Below are positions 13,566 through 64,000 of a DNA stretch of 64,000 nt, piece after piece. Source of the stretch: Haliclystus octoradiatus. Its lineage: Eukaryota > Cnidaria > Staurozoa > Stauromedusae > Haliclystidae. The translations under genes and the position numbers were made by a program. Numbering within the stretch: position 1 is the stretch's first letter; each line of letters starts with the position of its first letter. The stretch is taken from positions 21,415,482-21,479,481 of the forward strand of contig OU744451.1 in the NCBI GenBank assembly GCA_916610825.1. The letters are read 5' to 3'. Below the pieces are notes generated by a model. That model was not told the origin of the DNA and did no database searches. It saw nothing but the letters and a program-made list of their open reading frames with translations.

Positions 13566-15711
13566 CTAGAAACTCATTTTTTGTTCGGGATCAAATGTAT
13601 ACATTTTTTTCGTAATCGGCTCTACTAGTCCCCTTTTTGCAGCAACCTCTGAATCTACGTCCGATTTACTATCACAGATATTGAAATCAATTGTAGGTCG
13701 TATTACATTTTCACGAAATTCTCCTTGGTAATTCCCAGGTGGACGATATCGAGCAACATAAATCGTGCAAGGATATCCATTAATCTTTGCTGAAGCTCGA
13801 CCTATACCCATTTCTGCAGTATTTCTCCATACAACTTGTGTAAAATGTCCTGTTGCAGATGAAAAGTCGCCGTTGTTGTAATCGTAAGGAGCATCACATG
13901 ATTCTCTGTACCTGAAACAAAAGAAATTAGTAATTTATATTAAGTACCAAGGACTTGAACATAAAGTAGTTTCTACAAGGTTTTAAATCCAGGTTGAAGA
14001 TAAGCGGGAATTTAATTTATTCGGAATTACACCCAGCTGGTGGGATACACTGTAGCTCTAAAGCCCTGGCCAAATGAACGCGACATTTGCTTTCAATATT
14101 GAGCTCGCGTAGAACACTCAATAATGTGGAGCTCTTGTAAAGCATCTGCAGAGCCAATTATGCGTGGGGGCTAAACGAGCACTACATCCATGCTGAGCAA
14201 ATCAGAGCCATCTATTTACAAGAGTTGGGACACTTCTGCTATTTTTGTATCTTTTTGCCTTGACCCGAGCACGTTTTTAACAGTGCGCATGTGCAGGAGA
14301 ATGTTGTGTGTTTTTTTCAGCCATATTGTATTGTATTTTTTCGCGCGTTTCACTTGAAATGATTGAGAACCTGTTTCCAAAAGAACAAAGATGGCATCCA
14401 AAAATCACGTGACTGGTATCTGTCCAATTGGAGACGATAGCGGCACATGAAAGCGTGTCCCAACTCTAGTAAATAGATGGCTCTGGAGCAAATGTCAAGC
14501 AAATTTTGTGCTGATTTAGCCCGGGTAAAATATCATTACTAATGTCAATTTCAAATAATGACATTGCACAACAAGTTTAATCGATGAACCATGCAGTTGA
14601 TATCCTAATTGTTCTCTTGAGAACTCATTTCTAATGGATTGACTCATCAATAATTATTTGATTGACCTTTCTTAGTTGGAATTTAGAAATAATTTCCCTG
14701 ATTGTTTGGGAATCTATGTGCAAAAATGTGGAAACTGAATTGAAAAATTCTTAATTCAATTTGAAACTTTCGCAGTTCTTTTGTATACACTTAAATATCA
14801 TTTTCAAACTTTCGAAATTCACATTCGGAAAATGCAATGATCAATTGAAAGATTATTTAACCTTATTCACAATGAGAGGCTCTAGCAAGATGATAGAGAA
14901 TATTTGTTAGAAAAGCAAAAACAGAAAGGTGGCTTATAAGTTAGAAAAGATTATCCACAGCTGTTGACAGTACATTGACCGCCTTAGCTGCATCATCCTT
15001 CTGTTTTGATAACGAATAACTATAAATAATTGAAACAGTATCGCCTTTCGAAGACATCCGCACAACTCTTCTATTTCTGGAGGAGTGGCTCTTTTCGCTA
15101 GAATCAGTGATTTTAAATACTCTTTCTTGTTCTCAGACGCGACAGAGAAATAAATTTCAACAGATTTCATGGCAGATGACTCAATGATTGTCAATGCGCA
15201 ACGATACACCACAGCTCGTCACAATTTCCCTGTGGACAACTCCATCCACCACCAGAAGATGGTAATTTGATGTTTGAGATTAGGTGAGGCTGACTTGACC
15301 TTTGGGGGATTTGAACAACAGCCAACCAGATATGATCAGATGTGAAGCTCGGTTGCTCTGCCATCTGAGCTCCGTTAAACGATAGAGATATATTATCGTA
15401 CTTTCATACTAGGATTTTCATCCTCCTTGTCAATTGATTTTCAGAATTGTGCTTGGCTAAATCTTACCAAAGCTTTGTGAGTAATCTTCCAGCATTCTTG
15501 ATTCCAACACCATGTGAACAATCCATAGCCAAATTTTCCCCGTCTCCAATATTTCGTGGATGTCTCAATTGATGAATGCTTGCAAGATAGATGGCGTATT
15601 GTGAAGCTTCCAAGCTCATTGCATCGTTAATTACAAGAGGTGGGGCACCATGCCTTATGCGTAATTCATTGTGCATCGCTAATGTATCCAATTGCAACTG
15701 AGAATAGTTAT
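13566..15711 (-). CDS. CAP module 11, terminal module with stop codon
   Basis: N-exon 15711-15468: LDTLAMHNELRIRHGAPPLV, QLRHPRNIGDGENLAMDC, LLTKLW. C-exon 13911-13566: YRESCDAPYDYNNGDF, TGHFTQVVWRNTAEMGIGRA, PCTIYVARYRPPGNYQGEF, NICDSK, a 30-residue tail and the stop TAG. All four cavity residues are present. There is no hydrophobic tail or GPI-type signal at the C-terminus (it ends in DPEQKMSF), so the product is not anchored at this end. A candidate poly(A) signal follows about 120 bp downstream. Confidence 0.9.
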
Positions 15712-18700
15712 CTGCATGTGTTACAATTGATACTAAAATTAGTAATTATAGAGCTTTTTCAGAGGAACTCGATGAGTCCCTCGAGAATTATTTAAACAAA
15801 AGATTGTTAACAAAAGTTAGAATTTTCAAATTCGAGATGCAGAGACAAATTTAGTTCTACAAATTTGATTTTATTAGCCTGCACCGAAACGTCGTCTAAT
15901 AAAATCAAATCTGTTGAACTAAACTTGATTCTCTGCATCATTGTTAGCCTGGTGGTGTAACTTGAAAAAATGAATGTATAGTTATGGAACACAAACATAG
16001 CTGATGTGAAAAAGTCCTATAGTATAGCTAGTATTTTTGCAATTTTATTTGTCTTGGAAAATACAGTGTTTAAAATAAAATTTACTCTTGTAGCCTTTCA
16101 AGGATTTAACCACAATATAGTATATCAGGGTTTGAGATTATGGTTGCAGATCAGCAGAAATTTCAATTATCCGAATTGTACTGAAACGGGTTACACTGTA
16201 ATGCAACTACAGCTAGGAATATCCAACAAAAGTGATGAAAGCATGAAAGCAAAAGGGATTTAAAAGATAAAGAAATAAAAAAAAACGACCAAACTACATC
16301 AGTGAAATATCGAAACATTGAAGGTGTATATATCTAAATGAGAAATAGTAATGCTAATTAACATTTTAATATTAGCAGAACATTTTATCGATAGTGCTCC
16401 TTTATGAAATATAAATAATTAAGATCAACTTGCCTTCTTCTTCCAATTCTTTATCGGTGTGTGAAATTAACCCTGTCACCGTGGCATCAACTTCATTAGT
16501 TTCATTTGGAGCCTATAATAATGATCGAATTATTGATAGCATATAAAACTAAACATATAACACTCAAGTATAACTTATAGAGAATTGACCACACGGTAGA
16601 TCCAAACAAATGTGTGAAAGTACAATACCCAGTAGAAAATATTAAAATTTATGCTAAGAAATTCTACACCTTATTAAAAAAACACATATTTTATCTTGAC
16701 AGAAAGGGCCTGGCAAAAGAGATCCAATCACACGATTTTTATTTTTCTTTCATTGGAAGCTATTTACATCAAACTCAGCAATAGGGTCGACTCAAAATAA
16801 CTCAAAAATCAAAAGTTTTCCCTTAACTGGTTGTACTAAGTGACTTGATTACTTTGCAAAGTTTTTTCGATAAAAGAATAAGTATAATTTGAGAAGTAAG
16901 CATTTGAAAATGTGAGAATTTCAAATCGACAGTAGTCGTGATCTCATGGCACTCACTCGTCGTGATAGAGAATAAAGATATTTACAGTATGACGTTACTT
17001 AACTTCATTCTCCGTTTTTCAAGATTTGAAATTCTCACTTTTTCAAATGTTTATTTCTCAAAAAAGTACTAATATCCGTTTATGGGAGAAATTTGGCAAA
17101 GTAATTAAGTCACTTAGTACAACAAGTAAAAGTTTTGATTTTCGATTTTTTCTGAGTCGAACCTACATTGAACCTAGGACAAGTTCAGTTATATATTACA
17201 TGTTACAAAACCATTTTGTAGCGATGGTTGATCAAAAATGGCTACTTACGTTGCTCATTGAATTGTCAACAGAAGCATAGGGGTCATTGTCAGGGTCAAA
17301 TTTAGTCTCGATTGCATGTCTTCCTTCTCCTTGTACTAATACTCCACCGAGGTTTTTACACATATCTTTATTGAATTGATTCATTTGAATATTATCTTCA
17401 TAAAACCCAACAATATTCCCAATCGGTTTATATCGGGCTACAACATATGTACATATTTCATTTCCAATTTTTTTATTAACGACTCCGATGCCAAATTCTT
17501 GAGTAGATTTCCATATCATTTGTGAGAACTGTTGTGCATCTGTAAATGTCTTCATTTCCTTGAAGTTTATCCGAGGATTACATACTTCTTTATACCTAGA
17601 ATAGAAGATTATACATGTGAAGCACATTAACAAATGTAGGGACGCTGGAGCCAAGAATTCGTATTCGTATATGACGGTTGTTTCAAATTGCCTCTTTCCA
17701 ACAAGCCAGTCTTCGTTATATCAAAAATATTCAATATCGCTATACACTATTCCGTTATGCATAGGCCTACATCGTTTGCATATTTTTTCAATAATGTAAT
17801 AAAATTGTGCCATATGGCATCGCAATATTCTCGAAATTCATTTCCACTATTTATATAACAAACTAGCAAATTGGATCATTTTCACTGGCCTTGAGCATAT
17901 GTTTGCAATATGATGCAAAAGCAGCACTGCACATCCATCTGCCTCAAGGGCAGGAGAGAAAGCTGACCATCCAGTACCCTACTCCGGCAGGCACCCCTGA
18001 ACAAATGTACTCTAATTTGAATGGCTGCACGACACAGGCTGCTCCAGATACCATTTACTGTACTCCTAACAGAGTCTACTGTTTAATAAAAATATTGCTT
18101 ATTTGATGAATATCTCGTATATAAAAATCTTTGATATTTGGTATAGAGATAACTTTTCTTCATTTGAGTATGTTTTGACTATAAAATATCAAGATCTCTA
18201 GAACATTTGTAGTTGAAATAAAAAATAATTTCCAGCTATGTCAACCCCGGGATGTCAACAAGATGTCCTTGTTTCAAATTTTATTTTTCTTGTTTTGGTT
18301 TTAGTTTGTGCTCCAATTATTCTCAAGCGCATTACGTTTTGGTTGGAGCAAGAAAATTGGTCGAGACCAATTCCGCCTTGCAAGAATCTGAAATAAACCA
18401 GCGGCGGAATATATAAGTATATTAAAACATCGATGTCTCAGTCATTTTTCATCGGATTGGCTTCAAAATAATTTTAGTTGTTTACATCAGAATCAATACT
18501 TTATTTGAAGGCGTTTTTTAAAAACATTTAAAATTTTAGCATTTATATGTTTTTAAAAAACAGCGGAGAATTTTAATGGGATCAGCCACTCTGTTTTAAA
18601 ATTAGTTTGATTTCTCGATAGAACATTTTCTTTTAAATCTGTTTTCTTGAATATGGAAGTGTTTATGTCTGATCCAAACATTATTGAAATTAATAAAATA

Positions 18701-21700
18701 TACTGCAAATTAAGTCTTCTCTTGGAAAACATCTATCGAGAATCATTTAATTGATATTGATAAACAATTACCTCTGAATATCATTTTCACTCCTCTAAAT
18801 CTGTACATACTTTTAAACCTAAATTCAGTTCTGAAAATTTATCAAAATATTTTAGATATAATAAATTTATAATTTAACTGTTATATTACTACTATATTGA
18901 ATTTTGTATATAAAACAACCATTGTTGTTTTTCAGAAATGAAAAAAAAGAAAAATTGATGTTGTACTTGCAGTAGTACTAATAACAATGAACTTAATACT
19001 TAATTCTTACCATAACAACGTTGCATCTTCAGGACTCAAAGCATCTCCTCCACACTGCATTGCTAAATTTTCACCTGTTCCTGCCAACTTTGAAGGCGTC
19101 AAGATACCACTTTGTGAAATGTTTATAGCATATATTTGAGCGTCGTTAGTCAATTCATTACTTAATACCAATGGAGGGCTTGAATGGTAACTTCGTAATT
19201 TATTATGAGCAAGAAGTGATACATTTGCAAATTCTGTTAGATTTCCTTCAAATTATAGACAGTAACAGAAAATTATAGCTCGATTTAAATCATGATTTAA
19301 CTCAAACCTCATTGACGTTGCTTATACGTATAGTACGTAACTGTTAGTAATATTTAATGAAAACAATATCGCCTTATAACTAAAAACGGCCGTATAATTA
19401 TCTCGCTCCTATATTTAGCAGCGCTTCTTCTCGCATAGAGAAATCATGTAATGATTATACCTGAAAACATCACCCGCGACAGTGAAGCACATTTTCAATA
19501 ATTTTTGCAGCTATACCCTGATTAACATTTTTCTATTTATAATATTTGATAAAATTTCCTCTGGAGCATGCAATCCACCATTAGAAGATGGTATATTGAT
19601 TTGATGCTCAGATAAAGTCAAGGCTGAGTTGACATCTGGTGGATTTGAACCAAATTTTATCAGAAATCTTCTGCAATCTTTCGAATCTTAGGGTCTCAAT
19701 TCTCTTTTGATGTGAGATGTTATTCAACAGAGAATAATATAACTTTTCAAACTTGATCTGACATTTTTATTGCCGATATTTCATGTGAAGAATCCGAACA
19801 GGATGCAAAAAACTTTCAATAGCATTTCTCTTCAAAACATTGCAATTTAGAGAAGCAGTACAAGGCTATTATTTTATACGAGACATTTCATATTTTATAA
19901 ATAGAAAAAAAAAATTGCTGGTAGAAAGACGAAGTTGATCGGTCATTTGACAATGGCCGACCGCTAAATATTCTCTGTTATTCAACATCTCCGATGTCAA
20001 AAATGTCACATCCTGTTTAAAAAAAGTCCCTCAACGAGATTTAAAAACAACTTCAATAATTTTTAGATAAAAAAAATTTGAATCATTCGAAATTTAACTT
20101 CAAAATGCTTCGCAGAATTCAATGTTTCTCATTTACCAGTTAATTCATTCTTCGAACCATGAGTCTCATTTCCCAAATCAGCAAGTGCATTATCTAAGTC
20201 CACATCATTTAATGGATTGCTCTCTTCATCCGGGATTGAAATCTTTGTACGACATGCTTCATCTGTATAATTTCCTTTCAAAACATTCTCTTTATATGAA
20301 CCGATTATATTTCCACCAGGACGATATCGTACAGCTACATAGATGCATTGCGTGTTGTTGAAAATTGAACGCTTAACCCCGATACCAATTTCTTTTGTAT
20401 CTTTCCAAATCAGTTGTGAAAAGTGTCCTGCTTCAGTTGCCGTGTCTTGATTGAAAGCGTAATTGCAAACTTCATCGTACCTTATCAATAGAAAACGAAT
20501 ATAAAACTCAAGTACTATTTGAGTCCTGGAGTCAGTTACTAAGTTTCAATCCCTCTTCGTGGGATTACTCTTCAGATCTTTTCTGATTCTATGATATATC
20601 CTTCTCAATTACATCTATTTTTTATTTTTTTATTTTTTATTTATCATTTTTCCACGAACCGGGTAAGCTTACAGCTTTTTTTCACCGGGGTGGTTGGTTA
20701 ATTTGTTAGTATTTTGAAGCTTGTGTGCGTTTAATAGCCGGATGCCCTTCCTGACGCCAACCTGTAGTGCTTCGGACAGGGATTGAACCCGAGACCCTGT
20801 GGGCCGTGGTCCAACACCCTAGCCACTACACCACGGCCGCACTCAAGTTGCATCTACTATCCATAAATTGACCCAATAGCATGTCTATCTTTTGATCCAT
20901 ACATAACTTTAGAAAACCGTCTGATGGAAGTAGTCACAATCAAATCTCTTGCAAGGCTTATAGAATATTTGTACATAATTAAATAGCCTTTTATATTAAT
21001 ATTTATATTAAACGCCTTTATGCAATGTTCTGTAGAGATACTTTCATTTTCTATTTATACTATGTTGCCAATCGAACATACACCTTAATTGTAGACTTAT
21101 TACCTGTCTTTTTTGTATGAAAGAGTTCTGGTTATTGTTCACCCTAATAGCAAGCACCACGATATCATCACTATTATTCAATAATCGAATTTCGTGCTCT
21201 CAACAACAATTGGCTATTATAAACGTACTGGCTAAAATGGAACACGTGATTTAACAGTATCTAAGGACAATAAGCCGGCGTTGTCTAATACAATTATAAA
21301 AACGAAAATGACGGTGGATTAATTTATTACATGAAGTACGTGCCTCGTGCAGTGTATTATACCAACGATAACGATGGTGGATTAATATTATTATATAAAG
21401 TACGTGCGTCGTATGTATATATGCCATTATGTTATCCTATGTTGCATACAGTTCTACACTTACCAGCGATCAGTAACAGCTTCACCAGTTGATAATGAAC
21501 TATTTATTTTACATTCCATATATGCATTCTCTCCATCATTAACTTGCCCAGCTGGCGTGTTATATACATTATTATGTGACATTTGTTCAGCGTATTTTAC
21601 TGCGGCTTCAGACATATCTTTATTGAATTTTAAACATGGGCTGCCATGGATCTTTCGTAGACGATTGTGTTGCTTCAGCATTGATTTGGAAAATGTACCT

Positions 21701-54700: not shown

Positions 54701-57700
54701 TGTACTTACAATCTTTTGTTGAATCAGAAGTATCATATGACGGCATTTCCAAGACATGTGAAATTGGTCTCCTGATATCATCACATAATGAACGTCTAAA
54801 TGAACCACGTTTCACATTATCATGGAATTCAGTAGCGTCATTGCCTTTTTTACGGTATCTTGCAACGATATAGGTACAATGCTGACCGTTTCTACTAAAA
54901 CTTGCTTTACCAATACCCAATTGAGTTGATGATTTCCAAATAAGTTGAGTAAAGTCTTGTACATTGTGACCTTTTCCAGTTGTGAAATCATATCCATTAT
55001 CACAAACTTGACCATACCTGTATTATCATATAAAAATTAGAAGAATATATTGAATTATTTTTTCAAATGTCAACTAAATTTTGAATTTTGCAAGATAATA
55101 GTTTGAACAGTCGAACCTGTAATCACTATTACCTATTATATAGCGGTAATAAATCTAATGGCCACTATAACTCATGTATTTCTGTTAAATATCAATCTCT
55201 ATATATGAAAGCCACCTGCATATAATGTTCAGTTTATCTACCTCTCATAGCTAGCTGTTATATGGACTATAAAGGTTTCTCTGTAATAGAAATTGTATAT
55301 AAAAGACTCACATGTTTCAGGGCTTAAAAAGCCCCCAGACAGATATTAGTTCAACAATCCAAAGAGGTATATTTATTATTGATCTTAGGTTCATATATAC
55401 TATCAACCAATAGGGAATGTAAACAAGAGATTCACCCAAATTTAATGATCTATTTTGTACTGTGAATAATTTGTTATAGCTTGAGAAAAAACAGGAATGC
55501 ATTTTGCCACGAGCTCTTATACAGGTATCTCAAATGTATGCCGAATATAATTCATTATTGTTTTGCAGCTTTCTGCTGCAATTATTTTTGATTATCATCA
55601 ATCTAGAATTCTGGTTTTGAAAGGCTAAACGATTAAAAGGTTCATTTTCCTACAATCCTATGTTGAGTTCAAATAGTTTCATTTTTTCAACGCATACCAT
55701 GCTAATATTGCATCAGCTGCTGTCATGTCTTCATCATCCAATTTACATTGCATTGCCAAATTCTCTCCTTCGTTTATAGTTCTGTCATGATTTATTTTAC
55801 CACTCTCAGCTAGTTTTTGTGCATACGTTGCTGCTTCTTTAGACAATTCTTTATCTAATATCAGCTTTGGAGCGGAATGAATTTCACGATAGATGTTATG
55901 AATTTTCAATGCTGCCTCTGGAAACTCTAAAATGAGATGAATTGTATACTTAGTAGCAAATTTGATCGTTCTATTCTACTTCTGGCTGATAGTAAGATCA
56001 GGGTATTGGCTCAAGCTCAAATACAAGATAATTGGTATTGATTTGTATCACGGAATATCCAGTTATGTCATTAAAACTGAAGACATTACAAAAGTTAAAC
56101 TATATGGGATTTTAGTACGATATCGGATATAGCTTCATACTTGCCAGCCTATATTGGAACGTTTGTTGCTAGAACAAACGTTGCTTAAAAATGGTGACGA
56201 GCAGCGGTAAATACAGAGACTTTTTTCGGAACAAGGAAATTCAAATTTGGAGATTAAAGATTCAATTTACAAATGTTGAATTCAAGTTTAATATAATCAC
56301 CAAGTAATGCCCAATTAAATTAGGAATAAAATCATTATGAAACTGCTCAGCGATGTTTCAAACAAATATTGTGTTATCTATCGAACAATTTGAATACTTT
56401 GCGACTTTCGGTAATTAAAGAAAGATTACTTGATTCTTACATGACTATTATAATGATTACAAAATACTTATGAGTTGGTCACTCCACTAACTTAGATCCA
56501 ATGTAACACGTTAAAAATCATTTGAAAACTCAATCAAGGGACTGGAAGCTAAATAGTAGATTGCTCACTTATATGCAGAAGATCTGTGCTAGATTCCTAG
56601 TTGGTGAACAACAATATGTTTTCGTATGTAAACTTGATTGAAAAAATTGTTTAATTGTAATTCAAATTTGATGTGTATAATTGTAACTGCTTCGTATCCA
56701 CACAAAACGAGTTTTAGCAGCTTTAGCTTATGTAATAGTTGTATATAAAAATTTAATTTACGACATAAAAGAGAAATATCACCACACAATCTAGCCTGCG
56801 TTACAGACTGCGATTCATAAACGAAAGAATAGGGTCTGTGTGAATTGCTCGGTTGCTCTAGCTGTCCAAGCCTCGTATCAGAATGATATTGATGTCATAT
56901 AATTATGCAGGATTAAGGTGATTCTTACCAGGATTCTCACATTACTTTGTCTACTTCAGTTGACATGATTGCAATAAGTTCTATTTTAGGCTTCGTAGCT
57001 ATGACAATTAATTGATCGGACAGAGGTGATGAATTTATTATCTAAGAACAATAGATTTACCACGCATCGATCAGAAACTTCCGCTCTACGTTTTCGTAGA
57101 GTGGTTGGACAGAGAACTGTGCAAACCACACAGACCCTATTCTTTTGTGAATGAATCGCGGTCTGTAACGCAGACTACACACAATCCTGATGTAAACACT
57201 TTTACTATAGGCTTTATACTTTTTCATTTAATTAGATTACTTACTATACATTGCCTTTACTCTTCTAACATATGTCATACCAATGTGTGGAATTCCAGCT
57301 CTGTTATCATTCTCAGGTATTTCACCCCCTGAACGCCGTTTATTACACGTAGAACTATCAAATGAACCTTTTTTAACATTCTGTTTAAAATCACCAGCCA
57401 TATTTCCAGGCTCCTTATATCTAGCAACAATCCACGTACATAAATTCCCATCTTTCTTTGAAGTGGCTTTACCCATTCCTAATTTGGTGCTGCTCTTCCA
57501 TACAATTTGTGAAAAATGACCGGTTCCACCGCTAAAAGATCCTTTATCGAAATCGTAACCGGGATCACATACTTCTTTATACCTATATAAACAATAAAAT
57601 TATGCCTTTAACCACGGAAAATAATGAAACAGTTAATTATTAACAATAATTATTTTTAAATAGTTGGAAGTCTACGTAATTGGTAAAATCTAACACTTAT

Positions 57701-60700
57701 TTATTAAACGAGTTCATAGAAGTGAAAACATGTTGATTTATATTTTGAAAATTTCAATTGACACGAATGGGTGGATTTTGTTGATCCACTGACATGATTT
57801 CGGAGGCATATTCGATTTATGGACTTGCCTCTGAGCCAAGCCAAAATTTAAAGGCTCACACATTCACTTATAACTCTATATCAGTAGGTAATCAATGACC
57901 GGTTTTCAGAATGCAGCTAGCGTGAATGTATCTATTTTAGGATATACTAGATATACTGTTTATGATCTTACCAAGTTTCAGTAGCTTCACTTGCTTTCAT
58001 TTCTTTTCCCTCGCTGTCACATTTGTACGCAAGATTTTCACCATCATCTGTGTCCTCAGAATGTTTCAGTTTGCCGATTTTAGCAAGTTCTTTAGCATAT
58101 TCCTCTGCTTCTTCGTTCATTGATTCATCGACTGACATATCTGTTGCTTCGTGTGACTTTCTGTATGCGTTGTGCGCTTTCAATCCATCTTTGGCAAATC
58201 CTGATCGTTTAATAATCGATATATGTTGTAGCAAAGTTAATAGTCACTGGTAGAATTATTCCTCCTGATAGATATCCAATCGAACTTCCGCATAATATAT
58301 TATGCAGACAAATGAATAATACACAGATAAATGAAGAACAATTTTAACAATTTTAAAAATGAAATAAAGGAAAACCAGCATCTCGTATAGCAAGATAATC
58401 AGCCAACTTGCCATACATCTTTTGAAATTGTATCAAACTTGTATCAAAAATATTTACAGTACTATGTCCCACAAAACATTTCGATAAAAAAATAAAATAT
58501 ATCCAAAATCAATGATTTCATTTTATGAATGCAACTATAGAATGGATACTTATATAACAAATACAGATGTTAAAGCCCAAAAAGTTTGAGGATGAGTTGA
58601 AAGATGGATGAGGAAGGGAAAGATAACATAGTTTGCAGCTGTAAGGAATACAATTGAGAATTTCACATACCTCCGCTTTCCTCCTTTTCCCCTTCCTTTT
58701 CTCCCTTATCTTCTCCTTTTTCTCCCCCTTTTTCTCCTCCCTTTTCTCCCCCCTGTTCTCCGCCTTTTTCTTCTCCCTTTTCTCCTCCATTTTTGTCTTC
58801 CTTCAATTCTTCCTTTTTTTCCTTATCCGCTGCTTCAGATATCAATGCAGTTAAATTTCCACAAATTTTTTCTTTATCAAATTCTCCTTTTTGAACATTT
58901 TCTTTGAATTCTGATGAATTTTTACCATCTGGCTTGTATCTTGCAACAACAAATGTACAAAACATTCCATTCCGTTCCATTGTTGCCATACCCATCCCTA
59001 ATTGTTTTGTTGATTTCCAAATGAGTTGAGAAAAACGATCCGTGCTATGTGAGCGATCGGGTTTTTCAAAATCGAATTCTTTGCGACATATTTCTGAATA
59101 CCTGTAAAGTCAAAGTAATTTTAATTTAAAAATAATGCATTACAGAAAAGCTTGTCGTTAATACTGATATGCTTGCTTAATTAACTTCTGTTAAAAGTTT
59201 ATGACACAAAAATACGTAGGGAAATAATAGTACGTTCAGTACTCTGACTGCTGTCATAATTTATTGAAGAATCTCAAAATGTTGTACCTCTTACAATACC
59301 AACACGTTTGTTGCTGCATATATAATATAAGACAACATTTTCAGCATGTTTACAGTAATGACGTGGTTGTTCCTCCATACATCCATTATCCACGAAGAGG
59401 TAAGAGTTCATCCCATAAATGCTAAGAAGGCGTTGATTGCGAATAACAAACATTTGAGTGATCTTTTAAAATTGCAACAAAATGTTGAAGTGAAGCAAGG
59501 CAGAGGCAATCCATGGACACGTTTAAGTGGAGTATTCTGTTTGGGTAAACCTGATGCTTTGAATATGTACTATTCTGTCTATTACATTAGTCTAATAAAT
59601 CTATATCTTAGTTCCATGTATAAATAGTATAAATAACTGACATAGATAATATAACTGACCAAGGGCGGATCCAGCCAAACATCTGAGGGGTGCAAGAATT
59701 CTGGGGTAGAGGGGCGAATCCCCGTCCATCTAGGGGGTCCGGGGGCATGCCACCCTGAAAATGTTTGAAATTAAAACCTCTTAGGATGTCTATAGCATCA
59801 TTTTTGCATATACAAATCGGACTTTCAAGTAGCTACAAAGTATGGTCTATCTCATAGTTATTCCAAATTTACAGCGACAAAAAATGTTGTAACCAAGAAA
59901 AACAAGTATATATTCAAGTTAAATATATCAGCATTTGTAAGAAAATGGTAAATACAAATTTAAACAATGTACCCTGGAGAGAGAAGAACATTTGTCTTGT
60001 TTAGTATTTCCGGAGTTTGGATAAGGATGCCTCTTGAACCAAAATAAGTTTACACAAATTTTAGATGACCTTATGAGTTTATGAGTTTGCTCTGTGACGA
60101 TGCAAACTGCAACTCTGAAAATTCACAAACTTCTACAAGCATCGTTCAAATAAAATGACACCTTGAACTCATGTGAAATATTCTCCTTGGAGTATATGTT
60201 TTCAAACTGCTTCAGTTTTATCTTGATAAAGATCTCCATCTAAATGTTTTTAACTTCCAACAATGATTATGAATTTAATCCTTCGCTTTGCGCCATTTGT
60301 GATAGTAAGTTAACAAAAGTAGGCTAGATGACGATGACTGATTCCAGGGTTTAAAAGTAACAAAAATAGAAAAGAAAGTACAAGCAGGACAGTAAGCAAG
60401 ACAAGCTTTGTTATTCACGGGTGCCGAAGGGGGCGAACTATGTCAGGAATGTGAAATAGAGCATTATCATTGGTTTATAGCTAAATTCTTTGAAGGCTAC
60501 GTCATCTGAGGGGAGCGAAATCAAAGCAATCTATTGGATGCTCTACTTCCGCGGTAGCGAAATCAGTGTCGTTGATTGGTCAAATTAAGTTGACGTCCTT
60601 CTAGTCTAGTATCCAATCATACGATTATTATAACAATCGTACTGCTACTTCCAATCTGCTATAAAAAATATGACGTTCTCAGAATGAAATTTCAGTTACA

Positions 60701-63700
60701 AGTAGTTTTCTCAGTTATTGTTTTCGTAAAGAATGAAAGCAAAACAACAGCAGCGGCGATATGAAACAGTTTAAAAATCTGACGGGTGCGCTTGCCCCTG
60801 TCGCTCCCCCTGGATCCGCCCCCTGTAACTGACATAGAATTGAAACAAAATTGAGGCAATAGCATTTTCCGTTACTTGGAGCTTCAGACATTTATTTTGC
60901 CATCATCACACGGTTTACTCAGTCTCAGCCGTCTGATGATTGCAAAAATAAATGCGTGGAACTGCGAGCAACGGAAAAGGCTTTGCCTCATCTTTGTGTC
61001 AATTCCATATTATGCTGTGTTTTAACAAGCATTGAGCATGTGTTTACCTCATATTATATTAAATACCTGACATGAAATTTTATGTTGTTTAACTCACCAT
61101 TCTTTCGTAGCATCAGCTGCTGTCATTTCTTCTGTACCTCCTGTACACCTATAAGCAAGATTTTCACCAACGCCATCCAGTCCTTTATCATGTCGTAAAC
61201 GACGTTTTTCAGCTAATATCTTCGCATATTCAGAAGCATCTTTACTTAACGCTTCATCCAATTGTAATTCAGGAGAACCATGGATTTTACGAAATACGTT
61301 GTGAGCCTTCAGGCCTCCATTGGCAAAATTTTTACCTTGTGGAAAACATATCGGAATCAACATACAGTTAACCATTCATGAGCAACATAAAAAAACGCAT
61401 AAAAATCCTAGTCTGCAAACATCTTCTAGCTTCATTAAAAGGAAGTTCCAATTAAAAGATTTTCACAATATTAGGTAATCTATCGTCATTAATAATATGA
61501 GCCCGAATATAGGGTCTGTGTAAGAAAAACGTGAGAAACCTCATAACCAGATATCTGAATTATGGATAATCTTCTTTAATAATCACTTGAAAAAAACTTG
61601 TATAATGATTGGTGGATTTGTACCACGTATTTAGCAGTTATGTCAAGATGCGTTATATTTTTAAATGGTATTCGTAACAATTCCATTCAAATTGCATTTC
61701 ATGAAAAATCAATGACCCATTAAATTAGCCAAAACAAATCATTGTTGTAGTGAATTTGATGAGAGATAATTGATGTTCCAGACAAAGGTTATGTTACATG
61801 ATTATGAAAATGATTACATCACTCTGTGTGTAAGAGTGATGTAATCCCTTATTAACAGCATCCACAAAACGCCAATCATGTAAACGATAGATTAGCATGA
61901 AATACGTCCAACCCAATCAAACCTTATGCCGGTGAAAATCGTTGAATGTTTTAAGTTTCAGGTTTCAAGTTGAAAGAATTAACATGTTTCTTCCGTAAAT
62001 CATATCAAATATTCAACATTAATTTTGTATATTCTACTTTATTTATTACCCAGGGATGTTTCCTATTGCTTACTTGCTGTGATATTTACAGTTTGTTTTT
62101 ATTTTACAGAGTAGCCACATGGCAAACGTGTTTGGATCGCATCAAGGAAACACGAGCCAGTAAGGCAAGTATTTTTCAGGTTTCGAGTGTCTCCCAAAAT
62201 CCCAAGTGCTTGGATGAGGCGATCCAAACACGGTTGTCGTGTGGTAACTCTTTTATAAATTGATTCTACTCGATAAATATAATAAATTATCAGCATTATC
62301 TTTAATATATCGGAAAATATTGTAGCACTATCAAAACTGATAAATTTGATGTTCTCATAAAAAGCGTCCGACGATTCTATCAGCCAAACAAATTTATTTC
62401 CTAACAAAGAGGTCTAATATGAACCAATGGGAACCACTGTATATCCAGTAACAAAAGCATGTGAAAAAAGAGATTGTAGTTTTGGTAACGAAAATTTTGA
62501 TTTCCGATCGAAAAATAAAGGACAGCATGTCTTTTCCTTGTAAATAAACGAATTATAATATTAATAACCTACATCAAGTATTTCTAGAACAATTATTATA
62601 TGTAAATGATTTTATTTTTAAGGTTCAATATAACTGTTAACGTTTGAAATGGTACAATTGTTGAACATCGAATCAAAGCCTGCAGCGGAATGAAAATTCA
62701 TTTCTCGAGCCGTGTGTGAGATGTATTCACAGGCTGTGTTTATAGTAACTGACGTTGAATTTATCTGATCCTCTTCTTTTCTGCTGCCACGTGCACTGCT
62801 TTATGTATGCCCAACAAGTGAACCGGCACCACATATACAGGTAGAAATAAGTTGTAAATATATACCTGTATCTGACTCAGGTTTCTTTTCTTCTATTTTA
62901 GTTTCGTTGCTCTTTGATCCATCTGGATTATCTTCATTTTTAATAATATCAGTTGAGTTTCCTTCCTTTTCGCAATTGCAATCTGTGCTATTATCCCCAC
63001 CACCTCCAGTTTTCCCTCCTCCTTCTCCGCTAGCACCTCCAGGCTTTCCATCTCCTTCTCCACCACCACCATCACCCCCGGGTTTATCCCCTCCTTCTCC
63101 TCCGCCACCTCTAGCTTTGTTTTCTTCGTTTTCGCCTTCTTTTCCTTTGTCTGGCTCTCCAGTCTTCTCCCCCTTCAGATCTTCTTCGTTGGTTTCCTTT
63201 GATAAATCCCCGAGGATGTCATCAATTTTACTGCATTTGTCTTTCGTAAAGGATCCAGCTTCAACGTTCTTTTCAAAGTCTCCTTGCATGTTACCCGGCT
63301 CTTTATACCTTCCAACTACATATGTACATGTCATACCATCTTGCTTTCCAGATGCCATACCCATTCCAAGTGATGTACTACCCTTCCATACAATTTGGGT
63401 GAAATGACCTGTTCCACCACTAAATCCTTGCTTGTTAAAGTCATATCCAGGTTTGCATACTTCTTCATACCTAATAAAGTAAGCAATGATTGGAGTTAGA
63501 TAGTTCTCCACAGAAACGGAAATTTTGCTCTATCTCAAGTCATTCGTCTTAATACAATGGTCATTACAAGTGTTGGATGTTATCCAATATGTAATGTATA
63601 ATAACAAATATAATTTTCAATGATGTGCTTTATACAAAATTCTAAATAAAGTTTAATGACTTATGAAGACAGAAGTTACTTTCTTTCTGTTAAACATTCC

Positions 63701-64000
63701 ACCTTCTCTATATATTAGTGAAAATGAAGCTCTCGAGTTTGGAATATCGAATACAGTTGTCAAACAAATATATTATTATGTGTTCACTCAAACTGATGAA
63801 ATTTTGCATCGTCGAATGTTAAAATTCTTAAAAAATGTATCCACGTATGAAAAAAGTTGTTATTTATATCATAGATACTTTTAACCAAGAGGTGTGAATT
63901 TCGCTATTTTCCACTAGTATACAAATTCTTACCACATCTTTGTAGCTTCCACAGCAGTCATTGGTGGCCCACTTGGTTTACAACCATATGCAAGATTTTC
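13566..64000 (-). CDS. Giant multi-CAP-domain gene (GLIPR2/GAPR-1-like modules), 5' end beyond the window
   Basis: Minus-strand chain of CAP (SCP/TAPS) domains, each coded by an N-exon and a C-exon, plus one linker exon. N-exons hold the [A/T]HN..R..H and GEN motifs. C-exons hold YxExC, [G]HF[ST]Q[VIL][VI]W, CTYxVARYxPxGN and NV..G.F motifs. The C-exon wording (VARYxPxGN) is closest to the GLIPR2/GAPR-1 branch. Every N-exon begins in phase 1 and ends in phase 2 inside a Trp codon. C-exons complete that Trp and, except for one, end in phase 1. No signal peptide, start codon context or internal terminator was seen between modules, so one long transcript is the simplest reading; several neighbouring genes remain possible. 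The coding sequence ends at TAG 13566-13568. Conserved cysteines suggest a secreted or extracellular product. Function unknown; CAP proteins bind lipids or act in signalling and defence. Confidence 0.82.
14203..14485. mobile_element. hAT-like MITE (CAGAGCCATC family), copy 1
   Basis: TIRs of about 30 bp begin CAGAGCCATCTATTTAC, and the element is flanked by a perfect 8 bp duplication GAGCAAAT. Both are features of the hAT superfamily. About 283 bp, non-coding. It is in the intron of CAP module 11. A second copy is at 28518-28799. Confidence 0.9.
15087..15372 (-). repeat. tRNA-derived SINE (family S1), copy 2
   Basis: Same layout as the copy at 145-387, with the tail extending to a CTCTTTTCGCTAGAATCAGTG segment. 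Sits in the intron within CAP module 11, in the sense of the host gene. Apparent open frames here are chance. Confidence 0.75.
15836..15939. repeat. Hairpin-forming inverted repeat
   Basis: Arms of about 42 bp (15836-15877 and 15896-15939), beginning GATGCAGAGA and ending TCTCTGCATC, around an 18 bp spacer. In the intron between the linker exon and module 11. Probably a very small fold-back element. Confidence 0.75.
16434..16512 (-). CDS. Linker exon between CAP modules 10 and 11
   Basis: 79 bp open segment after a TATAG acceptor encoding APNETNEVDATVTGLISHTD and a short Glu-rich end (KELEEEG), with one N-glycosylation sequon (NET). It enters in phase 0, matching the module 10 C-exon, and leaves in phase 1 at a GCAAGT donor, matching the module 11 N-exon. 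This complementarity is the main support, as there is no domain in it. Confidence 0.62.
16782..17165. mobile_element. Fold-back element, 384 bp
   Basis: Ends TAGGGTCGACTCA and its inverse (TGAGTCGAACCTA). The arms of about 140 bp match imperfectly throughout (for example TTGTACTAAGTGACTTGATTAC against its inverse), around about 100 bp of other sequence. Non-coding, 85 bp downstream of the module 10 C-exon. Confidence 0.75.
17250..19245 (-). CDS. CAP module 10
   Basis: N-exon 19245-19011: LAHNKLRSYHSSPPLVL, GTGENLAMQCGGD, ATLLW. C-exon 17595-17250: YKEVCNPRINF, QQFSQMIWKSTQEFGIGV, EICTYVVARYKPIGNIVGFY, DMCKNLGG. The cavity Glu residues are kept, while both His positions are changed (Q in QQFSQ). 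Unlike all the other modules the C-exon ends in phase 0 (GTAAGT after MSN) and is followed by the linker exon at 16512-16434, which restores phase 1. The N-exon has no ATG of its own, so simple ORF calling misses it. Confidence 0.84.
19560..19655 (-). repeat. SINE S1, truncated copy
   Basis: Keeps the B-box region (GGATTTGAACCA on the plus strand) and the adjacent AGATAAAGTCAAGGCTGAGTTGAC tail part but loses the A-box end. In the intron between CAP modules 9 and 10. Confidence 0.6.
20137..21698 (-). CDS. CAP module 9
   Basis: N-exon 21698-21464: MLKQHNRLRKIHGSPCLKF, GQVNDGENAYMEC, VTDRW. C-exon 20480-20137: YDEVCNYAFNQD, AGHFSQLIWKDTKEIGIG, QCIYVAVRYRPGGNIIGSY, EACRTK. Glu, Glu and the second His of the cavity are present; the first His is missing. 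The linker is acidic with an NET sequon, and the donor is GTAAAT in phase 1. A tRNA-derived SINE lies in the intron between the two exons. Confidence 0.86.
20640..20842 (-). repeat. tRNA-derived SINE, second family
   Basis: On the minus strand, GCGGCCGTGGTGTAGTGGCTAG begins the tRNA-like head and GGGTTCAATCC is the B box. The body includes a GGATGCCCTTCCTGACGCC segment (plus strand), of a kind seen in widespread animal SINEs. Lies in the intron inside CAP module 9. Confidence 0.75.
22320..22355 (+). repeat. (TATC)n microsatellite
   Basis: About eight TATC/TCTA units with one TTTA variant, in the intron between CAP modules 8 and 9. Confidence 0.85.
23187..27514. mobile_element. 4.3 kb TIR-bounded DNA transposon with a decayed gene
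   Basis: The ends are inverted copies over about 130-150 bp: AGTCTGGT at 23187, then CCTAGAAAAAAATGGTATAA and further in CATATCCAAAATCCGC, each found inverted at 27420-27514. The element is flanked on both sides by AAAAT, a possible 5 bp target-site duplication, though weak evidence in AT-rich DNA. It carries the plus-strand pseudogene at 24390-26943, antisense to the host gene, in the 6 kb intron between CAP modules 8 and 9. Superfamily not assigned. Confidence 0.75.
24390..26943 (+). pseudogene. Broken mobile-element gene with a CXC-like cysteine-rich C-terminus
   Basis: Fragments in successive frames form one intronless gene. The N-terminus has a CxxC zinc-binding-like start (CCVICNNNF, later VHKKCRRDF), then PFNYKEQCVFC, then a conserved middle (TWIPKHLQTVL, ADNVDHNIATLDGKGTFHGM), then FDGYGNGASIKDQEH, then WSGCDTTSATFGHGK (reminiscent of PIN/FEN-type nucleases). 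Next come DPTQWGWKKE and a Cys-rich end (LLKFIRCKCKMSSKNPC, CSCRKNGLKC, CGDC). I recognise this as a multicopy uncharacterised family of invertebrate and fish genomes; its activity is not established. Frame breaks fall near 24684, 25245, 25400, 26120 and 26585, there is an in-frame stop at about 26378, and a 24 bp tandem duplication lies near 25850-25893. It cannot make a full product. Confidence 0.8.
27694..29338 (-). CDS. CAP module 8, most degenerate cavity
   Basis: N-exon 29338-29095: EIGLTAHNILRSIHDVAPL, IGVNSAIQC (GEN changed to GVN), ATKAW. C-exon 28037-27694: YKEICSNSKE, MQFTQMLSASSHEFGMG (His changed to Gln, Trp lost), EICTFFTAMYAPKQEIG, VCDIL, then a linker with two extra cysteines (MPCLKR, GSCDE). 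Only the Glu of YKE remains of the four cavity residues. The frame and splice phases are intact, so it is probably still translated. Upstream in the transcript is module 7; downstream is a 6 kb intron holding a large transposon. Confidence 0.82.
28313..28401 (+). repeat. Direct tandem duplication, about 45 bp unit
   Basis: AGGGACGACTCAGTCTTCCA..TTTGGTGT occurs twice head to tail with no visible difference. In the intron inside CAP module 8, just left of a hAT-like MITE. Confidence 0.9.
28518..28799. mobile_element. hAT-like MITE (CAGAGCCATC family), copy 2
   Basis: Over 90 percent like the copy at 14203-14485 by eye, same termini, flanked by GCCCTACA and GCGCTACA (7 of 8 identical). In the intron inside CAP module 8. 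Confidence 0.88.
29789..30079. mobile_element. PIF/Harbinger-like MITE, 291 bp
   Basis: Termini GGCCTGGTTCATACGCC and inverse, continuing as TTCTGTACATGTGCCGA, with a perfect 3 bp TTA duplication on each side (29786-29788 and 30080-30082). The interior repeats a GTTCTGAACG/GGCGTT motif. In the intron between CAP modules 7 and 8. Confidence 0.85.
30676..30844. mobile_element. Small hAT-like MITE (CAGGG family), abutting a CAP exon donor
   Basis: Termini CAGGGCCCGACAAAGG and the inverse of CAGGGTCCAACAAAAG; 169 bp. Flanking 8-mers CTTAAGAT and CTTACGGT agree at 6 of 8 places. Its right end lies 15 bp from the donor of the CAP module 7 C-exon. Confidence 0.7.
30860..31919 (-). CDS. CAP module 7, degenerate cavity, GC donor
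   Basis: N-exon 31919-31697: FLDIHNYLRALHSASPMVL, DSIGENHAKYC, IMKEW. C-exon 31212-30860: YGQVCTSGYNF, TAFEQVIWLDSKRLGIGKA, TCTYIVAMYQPKGNSVGKY, SLCDNLDEL. The cavity has GEN but lacks both histidines (TAFEQ in place of GHFTQ) and has Gln in YxE. The C-exon ends with a basic linker (KKANKRKLGEG) and the donor appears to be GCAAGT, giving the usual phase 1. A small hAT-like MITE ends 15 bp into the following intron. Confidence 0.84.
32850..33412 (-). repeat. Dispersed repeat R1, copy 1
   Basis: Inverse orientation copy of the element at 44166-44750; shared end TAATAATCACTTGA (inverse) at about 33400 and shared GGGTCTAAAT..GATGGCCCACGAACAAA at the other end, where the second hairpin arm is missing. 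Confidence 0.65.
34035..34155 (-). repeat. SINE S1, shortened copy
   Basis: A- and B-box segments are present (TGCTCTGCCATCTAAGC and GGAACTTGAACCAC on the plus strand), but an internal part of the tail is deleted. In the long intron between CAP modules 6 and 7. Confidence 0.6.
35858..36020 (-). pseudogene. Orphan, shortened CAP N-exon (relic half module)
   Basis: Minus-strand open segment between a TTTCAG acceptor (phase 1) and a GTATGT donor in phase 2 after KAISDRW, which is exactly how functional CAP N-exons end. It is only 163 bp against 223-250 bp for the others. It lacks the HN..R..H motif, GEN and the family cysteine. No matching C-exon was found down to module 7, so if included it would shift the frame. 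Modules 6 and 7 can splice directly together in phase 1 across it. It is read as the remains of a duplicated module that has lost its second half. Confidence 0.55.
37178..38269 (-). CDS. CAP module 6, divergent
   Basis: N-exon 38269-38020 starts AT|ATGGAAGAT after a TTTAG acceptor. It has YTINLLRKIHLSPPLQI in place of the usual AHN..R..H, and GGIFTSVNC where other modules have GEN, so the first Glu is lost. C-exon 37464-37178: YKESCRNGYDF, SQHFTQIIWKSTQRFGM (His kept), then CWLFTFCFFPVGNIVGKY, where CTYxVARY has become a hydrophobic CWLFTFCFF. Four family cysteines are kept and one is added. This is the shortest complete C-exon (287 bp). It is open and in phase, but its cavity is unlikely to bind metal. 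Confidence 0.82.
38270..43199 (-). other. Long intron between CAP modules 5 and 6
   Basis: Mostly unique AT-rich sequence with a SINE S1 at its right end. I see no CAP exon or other coding motif in it; the many short open frames lack recognisable features and keep the same sequence in the duplicate at 47868-52502. From 38566 onward it belongs to the duplicated block. Confidence 0.55.
42825..43116 (-). repeat. SINE S1, full-length-looking copy (again at 52128-52419)
   Basis: The most complete member: A box, B box and about 230 bp of tail, lying 84 bp beyond the C-exon of CAP module 5. The second occurrence belongs to the duplicated block. Confidence 0.75.
43200..44080 (-). CDS. CAP module 5, intact cavity
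   Basis: N-exon 44080-43849: ALKTHNAFREIHDSPKLKL, NLSHARELNGDGENIAFGC. C-exon 43531-43200: YSEVCNPGYSF, LGHFTQVIWRKSRLFGFG, TCTYAVARYRPAGNIKGQF, KLCDYLG. All four cavity residues are present. A Lys/Arg-rich stretch follows the fold (KGKFNRKLCDYL and beyond), then a 30-residue linker ending before GTAAGA in phase 1. A tRNA-type SINE lies 85 bp downstream of this exon in the following intron. Confidence 0.88.
44166..44750 (+). repeat. Dispersed repeat R1, copy 2, with terminal hairpin (again at 53469-54053)
   Basis: Begins TAATAATCACTTGA. Contains a perfect 18+18 bp palindrome with a 2 bp loop at 44265-44302 (AAAAGCGTGCAGGTATAG and inverse) and ends with an imperfect 44 bp-arm hairpin at 44632-44741 (GATTACATCACTCTT..GTGATGTAATC). 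No coding capacity. In the intron between CAP modules 4 and 5. The copy at 53469-54053 is the assembly duplicate. Confidence 0.7.
45407..46623 (-). CDS. CAP module 4, degenerate cavity
   Basis: N-exon 46623-46395: ALKIHNIYREIHSAPKL, KINHDRTINEGENLAMQC. C-exon 45714-45407: YGQVCDNGYDF, VQDFTQLIWKSSTQLGIGKA, HCTYIVARYRKKGND. Two cavity residues are changed: Glu of YxE is Gln (YGQ) and the His of HFTQ is Asp (DFTQ). The fold motifs and all four cysteines remain. The donors are GTATGC (N-exon) and GTAAGT (C-exon, phase 1). The C-exon is short (308 bp), with a compact linker after the fold. Confidence 0.87.
47368..47867. other. Assembly gap of exactly 500 N
   Basis: A run of 500 undetermined bases, a round-number placeholder of unknown true length. 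The sequence left of it ends with the last bases of an 8.8 kb block, and the sequence right of it restarts at the first bases of the same block. Confidence 0.99.
52503..53383 (-). CDS. CAP module 5, second copy (in duplicated block)
   Basis: N-exon 53383-53152 and C-exon 52834-52503, identical in protein to the exons at 44080-43849 and 43531-43200. If the block is an assembly artefact this copy should be removed from any count of domains. Confidence 0.8.
54710..55926 (-). CDS. CAP module 4, second copy (in duplicated block)
   Basis: N-exon 55926-55698 and C-exon 55017-54710 encode exactly the protein of the exons at 46623-46395 and 45714-45407. They lie in the right copy of the 8.8 kb block beside the N gap, so this is probably the same gene segment assembled twice. 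In this copy the right-hand neighbour is unique sequence leading to module 3, which is what the real gene should show. Confidence 0.8.
56793..57176. mobile_element. TA-flanked MITE, 384 bp
   Basis: TIRs of about 50 bp start [G]CCTGCGTTACAGAC / GTCTGCGTTACAGAC and include AATAGGGTCTGTGTG, with TA next to each end, as in Tc1/mariner-type insertions. Lies just left of CAP module 3. A fragment with GAATATAGGGTCTGTGT occurs at about 61504-61522. Confidence 0.7.
57245..58200 (-). CDS. CAP module 3, intact cavity
   Basis: N-exon 58200-57972: GLKAHNAYRKSHE, KLKHSEDTDDGENLAYKC. C-exon 57582-57245: YKEVCDPGYDFDKGSF, TGHFSQIVWKSSTKLGMGKA, LCTWIVARYKEPGNMAGDF. All four cavity residues (His, Glu of GEN, Glu of YKE, His of GHFSQ) are present. 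The open frame reads through into a stop 6 bases past the end, but a strong GTAAGT donor sits at 57244 in phase 1, matching the other modules, so splicing to the next module is preferred over a stop here. Confidence 0.87.
58671..61335 (-). CDS. CAP module 2 with Glu/Lys/Gly repeat tail
   Basis: N-exon 61335-61098: GGLKAHNVFRKIHGSPELQL, RLRHDKGLDG, GENLAYRC. C-exon 59101-58671: YSEICRKEFDF, DRFSQLIWKS, LGMGMATMERNG, MFCTFVVARYKPDG. The second cavity His (HF[ST]Q) is replaced by Arg, so the metal-binding tetrad is incomplete. The C-exon ends with roughly 45 residues of imperfect GGEKGE repeats before a GTATGT donor in phase 1. The 1,996 bp intron between the two exons carries the hAT-like element at 59660-60825. 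Confidence 0.88.
59660..60825. mobile_element. Non-autonomous hAT-like element, 1,166 bp
   Basis: Termini CAAGGGCGGATCCAG and CAGGGGGCGGATCCAG (inverse), flanked by a perfect 8 bp duplication TAACTGAC (59652-59659 and 60826-60833). No transposase-like frame inside. Occupies most of the intron inside CAP module 2. Confidence 0.9.
61575..61855 (+). repeat. Dispersed repeat R1, copy 3, internally deleted
   Basis: Same start (TAATAATCACTTGA) and same end (GTGATGTAATCCCT) as the copy at 44166-44750. About 80 bp of the middle is missing and the terminal hairpin is reduced to ATTACATCACTC..GAGTGATGTAAT. In the intron upstream of CAP module 2. Confidence 0.65.
62866..64000 (-). CDS. CAP module 1 (N-exon cut by the window edge), Gly/Glu-rich tail
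   Basis: N-exon 64000-63935 is partial and begins at the ENLAYGC motif; it ends before a GTAAGA donor. C-exon 63470-62866 has YEEVCKPGYDF, TGHFTQIVWKG, MTCTYVVGRY and KEPGNMQGDF, with the cavity Glu and His present. The C-exon is unusually long (605 bp). After the CAP fold it continues for about 110 residues of acidic then Gly-rich low-complexity sequence (repeats such as GGGGEGGDKPGG), then an Asn/Asp/Lys-rich part with NST sequons, ending at a GTATAT donor in phase 1. The tail looks like a flexible linker or glycosylated spacer. The first cavity His lies outside the window. Confidence 0.88.

What the first reader, a model, noticed from the sequence alone, without database searches (positions are those of the whole stretch)
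13566..64000. A serial CAP-domain gene: at least eleven two-exon modules chained in phase 1
Seen: eleven distinct CAP modules on one strand over 50 kb, each built from an N-exon (phase 1 in, phase 2 out inside a Trp codon) and a C-exon (phase 2 in, phase 1 out). Only module 10 departs, and a 79 bp linker exon repairs its phase. Known: most animal CAP proteins (GLIPR2, CRISP, venom allergen-like) have one domain, a few have two. Inference: the symmetric 1-1 module is what allows repeated internal duplication, giving a very large beads-on-a-string CAP protein. The gene continues to the right of the window, so the true number is higher.
Basis: partly seen in the sequence, partly recalled or inferred. 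Interest (0 to 1): 0.8.

Follow-up and report, generated by a model that had tools for sequence, protein, structure and literature searches.

The report
Giant 28-unit CAP-domain gene in cnidarian
The window holds the last eleven units of what looks like one huge gene for a secreted protein built from about 28 copies of a common protein domain (CAP) joined by flexible linkers; strings of up to eight such copies were already reported, so this is an extreme case of a known design, still to be confirmed with RNA.

Summary
In detail: eleven distinct CAP (PF00188) modules lie on the minus strand, each an N-exon and a C-exon split inside a Trp codon. Thirteen are printed, but 38566-47367 and 47868-56670 are the same 8.8 kb on either side of a 500-N gap, an unmerged contig overlap. 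The genome search placed the window at G000:C7:21415482-21479481, and the array runs 117 kb further right. There I read three tandem same-strand genes: A (12 modules plus a decayed exon), B (2, tentative) and C (28). Gene C opens with a CAP exon carrying its own Met and signal peptide (extended coordinate 124199), stays open through 56 modelled exons (6,587 aa) and stops at window 13566; the window is its modules 18-28. Against this: no RNA; four inner N-exon ORFs of gene C also show a Met plus hydrophobic run, one of them stronger than gene C's own start. The '79 bp linker exon' is unnecessary. CAP strings are a known kind (8 in Hydra predictions found here; up to 8 in a 2023 review), so 28 would be a new extreme, not a new class. 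Function is inferred: a secreted, disulfide-rich scaffold.

The parts
63933..64000 (-). Module C18, N-exon (cut by the window edge; full exon 64164-63933 in extended coordinates)
62866..63470 (-). Module C18, C-exon with Gly/Lys/Glu-rich tail; donor choice uncertain
61098..61335 (-). Module C19, N-exon (its ORF also has an upstream Met with a hydrophobic stretch)
58671..59101 (-). Module C19, C-exon
57972..58200 (-). Module C20, N-exon
57245..57582 (-). Module C20, C-exon (site residues complete)
55698..55926 (-). Module C21, N-exon
54710..55017 (-). Module C21, C-exon
53152..53383 (-). Module C22, N-exon
52503..52834 (-). Module C22, C-exon
47368..47867 (.). 500-N scaffold gap between two overlapping contig ends
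38566..47367 (.). Left contig end, the same sequence as 47868-56670 (second print of modules C21 and C22 at 46672-43168); most likely a false duplication
38020..38269 (-). Module C23, N-exon
37178..37464 (-). Module C23, C-exon (weak donor)
31697..31919 (-). Module C24, N-exon
30866..31212 (-). Module C24, C-exon
29095..29338 (-). Module C25, N-exon
27694..28037 (-). Module C25, C-exon
21464..21698 (-). Module C26, N-exon (acceptor 21698 or 21704)
20137..20480 (-). Module C26, C-exon
19011..19245 (-). Module C27, N-exon
17250..17595 (-). Module C27, C-exon, the one with a phase-0 donor (AAC|GTAAGT)
15468..15711 (-). Module C28, N-exon (acceptor 15711 in phase 1 or 15697 in phase 0)
13566..13911 (-). 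Module C28, C-exon, terminal, ends in a stop codon with no phase-1 donor scoring above -1

Best explanation
The window holds the 3' part (modules 18-28) of one long cnidarian gene for a secreted protein of about 28 CAP domains (model 6,587 aa). Read from the sequence: each module is an N-exon (phase 1 in, phase 2 out) plus a C-exon (phase 2 in, phase 1 out), so whole modules can be duplicated or skipped without a frame change; the first exon has its own Met and signal peptide; the last C-exon ends in a stop with no donor; the joined exons are open. Inferred: the exons belong to one transcript; the array grew by tandem duplication of this 1-1 module and by duplication of the whole gene; the product is exported; each CAP domain folds with conserved disulfides; Gly-rich spacers in the middle keep the domains apart. 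With the CAP site residues complete in only 13 of 28 modules, the protein more likely acts as a multivalent, stoichiometric scaffold or ligand-binding matrix protein (perhaps of nematocysts or extracellular matrix) than as an enzyme.
For: Gene C model: 28 N-exons and 28 C-exons in strict alternation; 19,764 nt, one terminal stop, 28 CAP hits of 128-240 bits. With no phase imposed (my count from the listing) the top acceptor is phase 1 in 25 of 27 non-first N-exons and the top donor is phase 1 in 25 of 27 non-terminal C-exons. The first modules A1, B1 and C1 each carry a Met plus a hydrophobic run and are related: A1's best hit in another gene is C1, and B1 and C1 are each other's. The last C-exons of A, B and C end in stops with no phase-1 donor scoring above -1. 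Modules of A and C match in order as reciprocal best hits, A2-A5 with C2-C5 and A6 with C7, as expected if the chain is one inherited unit. Across species, the first module of the 5-CAP protein P0005 pairs with C1 (103 bits, next 85). Relatives with 5-8 CAP domains exist as single predicted proteins. In a relative's model (P0085) 4 of 5 N-halves run to this same Trp. Signal-peptide-like exons between window modules are not enriched: 10 on the coding strand, 14 on the other, 8.1 in shuffles. Four cysteines are kept in 27 of 28 modules.
Against: No RNA evidence. Four inner N-exon ORFs of gene C also have an in-frame Met upstream with a hydrophobic stretch (96131, 75457, 68475, 61097); the one at 75457 (3.75) is stronger than gene C's own start (3.15), although its 98-99% identical twin 81970 has none. 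A C-exon without a donor is not proof of a gene end: the first C-exon of gene B (138372) also has none, so gene B is tentative. Several acceptors are weak, and the C1 C-exon donor scores 0.2. In Gly-rich tails GGT codons themselves put GT in phase 1. The C27-C28 junction breaks the phase rule. Phase 1 was imposed when the model was built, and three boundaries were set by hand. The pairing of Hydra's last module with C28 is a tie in bits with A7 (135.0 each) and is not resolved on a tree (p-AU 0.489); Hydra's first module does not pair with C1. Function is not tested.
Confidence: 0.7

Rival explanations
1. Gene C is really two or three multi-CAP genes lying head to tail, with a hidden start inside it (best candidate: the N-exon ORF at 75457), so the window modules belong to a shorter gene of about 11-15 CAP domains.
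For: In-frame Met with hydrophobic run at 96131, 75457, 68475 and 61097; gene boundaries do occur in this array; weak splice sites at some joints.
Against: The twin of the 75457 exon lacks the Met although the DNA aligns at 89% over 446 bp; the C-exons before these N-exons all have a candidate phase-1 donor; none of the four modules resembles the first-module type A1/B1/C1 best.
Confidence: 0.2
2. A tandem array of separate single-CAP genes, each with its own promoter, signal peptide and poly(A) site.
For: Such an array is known in Lucilia cuprina (16 genes in 53 kb; abstract of PMC7694928). Phases alone cannot exclude it, since signal-peptide exons often end in phase 1 (recalled).
Against: Most C-exons have a donor before their stop; signal-peptide-like exons between window modules are not enriched; one interval between modules is only 470 bp, though that interval does hold one weak signal-peptide-like candidate; cnidarian relatives are single multi-CAP proteins.
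Confidence: 0.06
3. The gene is one unit, but alternative splicing of the 1-1 modules gives mostly shorter proteins, and the 28-domain form is rare or absent.
For: Two Hydra models of LOC100206500 (P0003, P0004) have 7 CAP domains where P0001 has 8; symmetric modules can be skipped in frame.
Against: No expression data for this species; the Hydra isoforms are predictions.
Confidence: 0.3
4. The 9.3-kb repeat at 38.6-56.7 kb is a real duplication, so the window has 13 modules and gene C has 30.
For: The assembly prints both copies.
Against: The copies end exactly at the two edges of the N gap and differ by one homopolymer base.
Confidence: 0.03

Closest known systems
Hydra vulgaris LOC100206500 (P0001, 2,362 aa) and LOC105846415 (P0002, 2,136 aa), predicted proteins
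   Same: Eight CAP domains each on one predicted chain; P0001 begins with a signal-peptide-like stretch before its first CAP domain
   Different: 8 against 28; Hydra repeats are mostly recent copies of each other; LOC100206500 has long Ser/Pro/Asn-rich and Ala/Lys-rich stretches where gene C has Gly-rich linkers
EukProt TCONS_00024097-protein (P0005, 1,372 aa; Clytia by recall)
   Same: Five CAP domains, signal-peptide-like start, Gly-rich linkers; its first module pairs with C1
   Different: Five domains only
Algal CAP strings (Raphidocelis, up to eight, PMC10189770 passage; Tetradesmus obliquus P0008, six)
   Same: Serial CAP domains in one predicted protein
   Different: Other kingdom, fewer domains
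Animal proteins with 3-6 CAP domains: frog P0079 (6), tsetse P0082 (5), fish, tick, beetle and myxozoan hits (4)
   Same: Serial CAP domains
   Different: Fewer domains; the fish hits are named GLI pathogenesis-related 2
GAPR-1/GLIPR2 (PDB 1smb)
   Same: Nearest solved CAP structure by sequence for a profile of 5 window modules (E 1e-34)
   Different: Single domain; lacks the conserved cysteine pairs aligned in the window modules (alignment)

Membership tests
CAP superfamily (PF00188) | Match to the CAP profile above the curated cut-off | tested here: met
   Spliced window chain 420 bits against 21.1, 10 stretches
CAP superfamily (PF00188) | His/Glu/Glu/His site residues (positions by recall) | tested here: inconclusive
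   Complete in 13 of 28 gene C modules
Multi-CAP concatemer (as in Hydra) | Several CAP domains in one open chain with one signal peptide and one stop | tested here: met
   Gene C model, 28 domains, one stop; joints chosen by me
Multi-CAP concatemer (as in Hydra) | One transcript | not testable with these tools
   No RNA data
CRISP family | Cys-rich domain after the CAP domain | tested here: not met
   Pfam finds only CAP in the spliced window chain; modules 1-17 were not scanned with Pfam as a chain
NOWA (nematocyst outer wall antigen) | CAP with minicollagen Cys-rich domains | tested here: not met
   Pfam finds only CAP in the spliced window chain; NOWA layout partly recalled, named in PMC3627010 passage
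Tandem array of single-CAP genes | Signal peptide start and terminal stop for each module | tested here: not met
   8 of 45 N-exon ORFs have a Met at least 12 aa upstream with a hydrophobic run, 3 of them the proposed first modules; 26 of 27 non-terminal C-exons of gene C have a phase-1 donor above the cut

The most novel reading that the evidence does not exclude
A single secreted protein of about 6,600 aa with 28 CAP domains and silk-like Gly/Ser spacers of up to about 420 aa, one of three tandem concatemer genes (28, 12 and 2 units) that grow and shrink by whole-module duplication. It would be the longest CAP string I know of, and a repetitive extracellular or nematocyst material in which CAP domains are the folded beads and half have lost part of the conserved site.
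Probability: 0.55. Interest if true: 0.7.

Novelty: new member of a known kind. Interest (0 to 1): 0.55.

Why it matters
CAP proteins are studied mostly as single domains whose molecular role is disputed. PMC10189770 argues that concatenation points to a stoichiometric rather than catalytic role (passage). A 28-unit string in which four cysteines are kept in 27 of 28 units but the four site residues in only 13 of 28 is a natural experiment on that question. The locus is also a clear case of a symmetric 1-1 exon module that was copied within genes and as whole genes.

Tried and rejected
Real 9.3-kb tandem duplication: rejected as the main reading. The last module as a separate single-CAP gene: 'LLILVSIVTHADNYSQ' looked like a signal peptide, but that ORF has no Met at least 12 aa before the domain, and other N-exon ORFs show similar intron-derived hydrophobic runs. 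The 79-bp linker exon: one weak candidate at 16746-16668, dropped; an unseen linker is not excluded. One gene for the whole 167-kb array: rejected, because signal-peptide N-exons and stop-ending C-exons mark two inner boundaries. Orthology of single modules by tree: unresolved, 20 of 30 inner branches open and bootstrap not settled; one clade of all ten window modules was rejected (p-AU 0.0089), as may happen with old paralogues. A strict signal-peptide scan was replaced by a looser one with two control peptides, because its threshold was close to the Hydra signal peptide. NCBIfam on the two Hydra proteins gave only matches below cut-off. The held library has no paper with the two Hydra LOC names or the TCONS name. 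Balasubramanian et al. 2012 is not held; I know it here only through PMC3627010. PMC11876637 (Hydractinia atlas) has no whole-word CAP or SCP. The species was not identified; 'cnidarian' rests on the best protein hits.

Full report
Observation. Ten stop-to-stop ORFs of the window were scanned with Pfam; 7 of 10 matched PF00188 at E up to 0.1, four of them above the curated cut-off and one phage family as well at 0.036. Single exons hold half a domain, so weak scores were expected. A profile built from the window's modules found 25 CAP exon ORFs at iE<1e-3, all on the minus strand. They alternate N-exon, C-exon from the right edge down to 13569. N-exon donors split a Trp codon (TG|GT, phase 2, 10 of 10); C-exons start AG|GTA (11 of 11). 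Joined, they give 2,123 codons without an inner stop, in which Pfam reports ten CAP stretches.

Assembly copy. There is a 500-N gap at 47368-47867. The 8,802 bases before it and the 8,803 bases after it are the same sequence but for one homopolymer base, and each copy ends exactly at the gap. That is the signature of two overlapping contigs scaffolded without merging. Two modules (C21, C22) are therefore printed twice; the distinct number in the window is eleven, the first being cut by the right edge.

Outside the window. When the genome search answered, the window lay at G000:C7:21415482-21479481 in a 261.9-Mb, 33-contig assembly, with more CAP exons to the right on the same strand. I fetched stretches reaching 138.6 kb to the right and joined them with the window (extended coordinate = C7 coordinate minus 21415481). 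CAP exons on the minus strand go up to 180685. Leaving out the assembly copy there are 43 N-exons and 42 C-exons: gene A 13 and 12, gene B 2 and 2, gene C 28 and 28. One N-exon of gene A (148960) is decayed and has no partner, and a second gap (2,500 N at 170368-172867) lies inside gene A.

Gene boundaries. Three N-exons carry a Met and a hydrophobic run in frame with the domain: 180389 (4.04), 140413 (3.26) and 123906 (3.15). These first modules are related. C-exons at 141966, 128359 and 13569 run into a stop with no phase-1 donor scoring above -1; the first two belong to closely related last modules (A12 and B2, 72% identity). On this reading gene C runs from 124199 to 13566, 110.6 kb in the assembly and about 101.3 kb after removing the copy and gap. 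Its model has 56 exons, 6,587 aa and 28 CAP domains. Weak points: five N-exon ORFs that are not first modules also show a Met plus hydrophobic stretch (159475 in gene A; 96131, 75457, 68475 and 61097 in gene C). The one at 75457 (3.75) outscores gene C's own start, but its 98-99% identical twin 81970 has none, so it is probably intron sequence. The first C-exon of gene B (138372) also has no donor, so a missing donor alone does not mark a gene end, and gene B is tentative.

Phases. With no phase imposed, the top acceptor is phase 1 in 25 of 27 non-first N-exons of gene C, and the top donor is phase 1 in 25 of 27 non-terminal C-exons (my count from the listing). Part of the donor bias comes from Gly-rich tails, since GGT codons put GT in phase 1. 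In the model, where phase 1 was required, 26 of 27 non-terminal C-exons have a donor above the cut. The one clear departure is C27 (17250, GTAAGT, phase 0), which can join in frame to 15697; the phase-1 acceptor 15711 scores slightly better (-1.2 against -2.3), so an unseen linker exon is not excluded.

Anatomy. Four cysteines are kept in 27 of 28 gene C modules. The His/Glu/Glu/His site (positions from recalled CAP structures) is complete in 13 of 28, nine of them in the run C10-C18, and in 4 of the 11 window modules. Linkers 1-6 are 9-45 aa, 7-20 are 18-422 aa with up to 57% Gly, and 21-27 are 3-22 aa; lengths depend on the donors chosen. Window modules other than C18 are old (median pairwise identity 33% among ten); C12/C14 and C17/C18 are recent copies (98-99% and 84%). 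The nearest solved structure by sequence, for a profile of five window modules, is human GAPR-1 (1smb, E 1e-34), then yeast Pry1 among others.

Relatives. The chain query (1,809 aa, without the last module) found 11 proteins. By profile count (171 proteins): Hydra LOC100206500 isoform X3 8 CAP domains and its other two models 7, LOC105846415 8, a EukProt protein named TCONS_00024097 (Clytia by recall) 5, Tetradesmus 6, an unnamed EukProt protein 6. A shorter query found 93 further proteins, among them a frog (6), tsetse (5), and fish, tick, beetle and myxozoan proteins (4). So CAP strings are widespread, and 28 is 3.5 times the largest count I met. Hydra repeats group among themselves on the tree, so the expansions are at least partly independent. 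Reciprocal best hits pair the first module of P0005 with C1 and Hydra's last module with C28, but the latter is tied with A7 at 135.0 bits, and Hydra's first module does not pair with C1.

Literature. PMC10189770 (one passage): up to eight CAP domains in an alga, read as stoichiometric function. PMC9778506 (passages): Trichuris proteins with 2-3, one with CAP domains over its whole length. PMC7694928 (abstract and outline): a 16-gene CAP tandem array in a blowfly, the model for the single-gene-array rival. PMC3627010 (passages): CAP domains in many Hydra nematocyst proteins, with a suggested structural role, and mostly short single-CAP proteins in Nematostella. PMC5566210 (passages): one CAP-containing polar capsule protein. 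The searches listed no paper whose title or abstract start told of a string longer than eight; I did not read those papers whole.

Verdict. A real, well-formed and very long CAP-string locus: a new extreme of a known design. That gene C is one transcript is inferred, not shown.

Noticed in passing
window 38566-47367 and 47868-56670: Unmerged contig overlap across a 500-N gap: a false duplication that automatic annotation would count as extra exons.
   Followed up: yes
window 626-2910: Large inverted repeat: arms 626-1651 and 1866-2910, about 93% alike, with the outer 503 nt 98% complementary.
   Followed up: partly
window 24655-26943: Plus-strand ORFs in the intron between modules C25 and C26; no Pfam match for the five pieces scanned there; perhaps a decayed mobile element.
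   Followed up: partly
window 11050-11340: Minus-strand exon with the start of a heat-shock-factor DNA-binding domain (Pfam E 0.0019, below the curated cut-off), downstream of gene C: probably the next gene.
   Followed up: partly
window 32851-33412, 44164-44679, 53467-53982 and 61576-61829; 14203-14489 and 28518-28803: Dispersed repeats within introns, likely mobile-element copies.
   Followed up: no
G000:C7:20893056-20946202 (plus strand): A second cluster of CAP exon matches half a megabase away on the other strand.
   Followed up: no
G000:C11:3754574, C8:1254922, C11:80476 and others: Near-full-length CAP matches in one open frame, without the intron at the Trp codon, elsewhere in the genome: intronless or differently split CAP genes.
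   Followed up: no
extended coordinate 148960-149220 (right of the window): A decayed N-exon without a C-exon partner in gene A: a dying module.
   Followed up: partly
protein P0085 (EukProt gene1836-16326_t): A relative's gene model made of five CAP N-halves with Gly-rich linkers and no C-halves: either a mis-model that skips C-exons or a real N-half splice form.
   Followed up: partly
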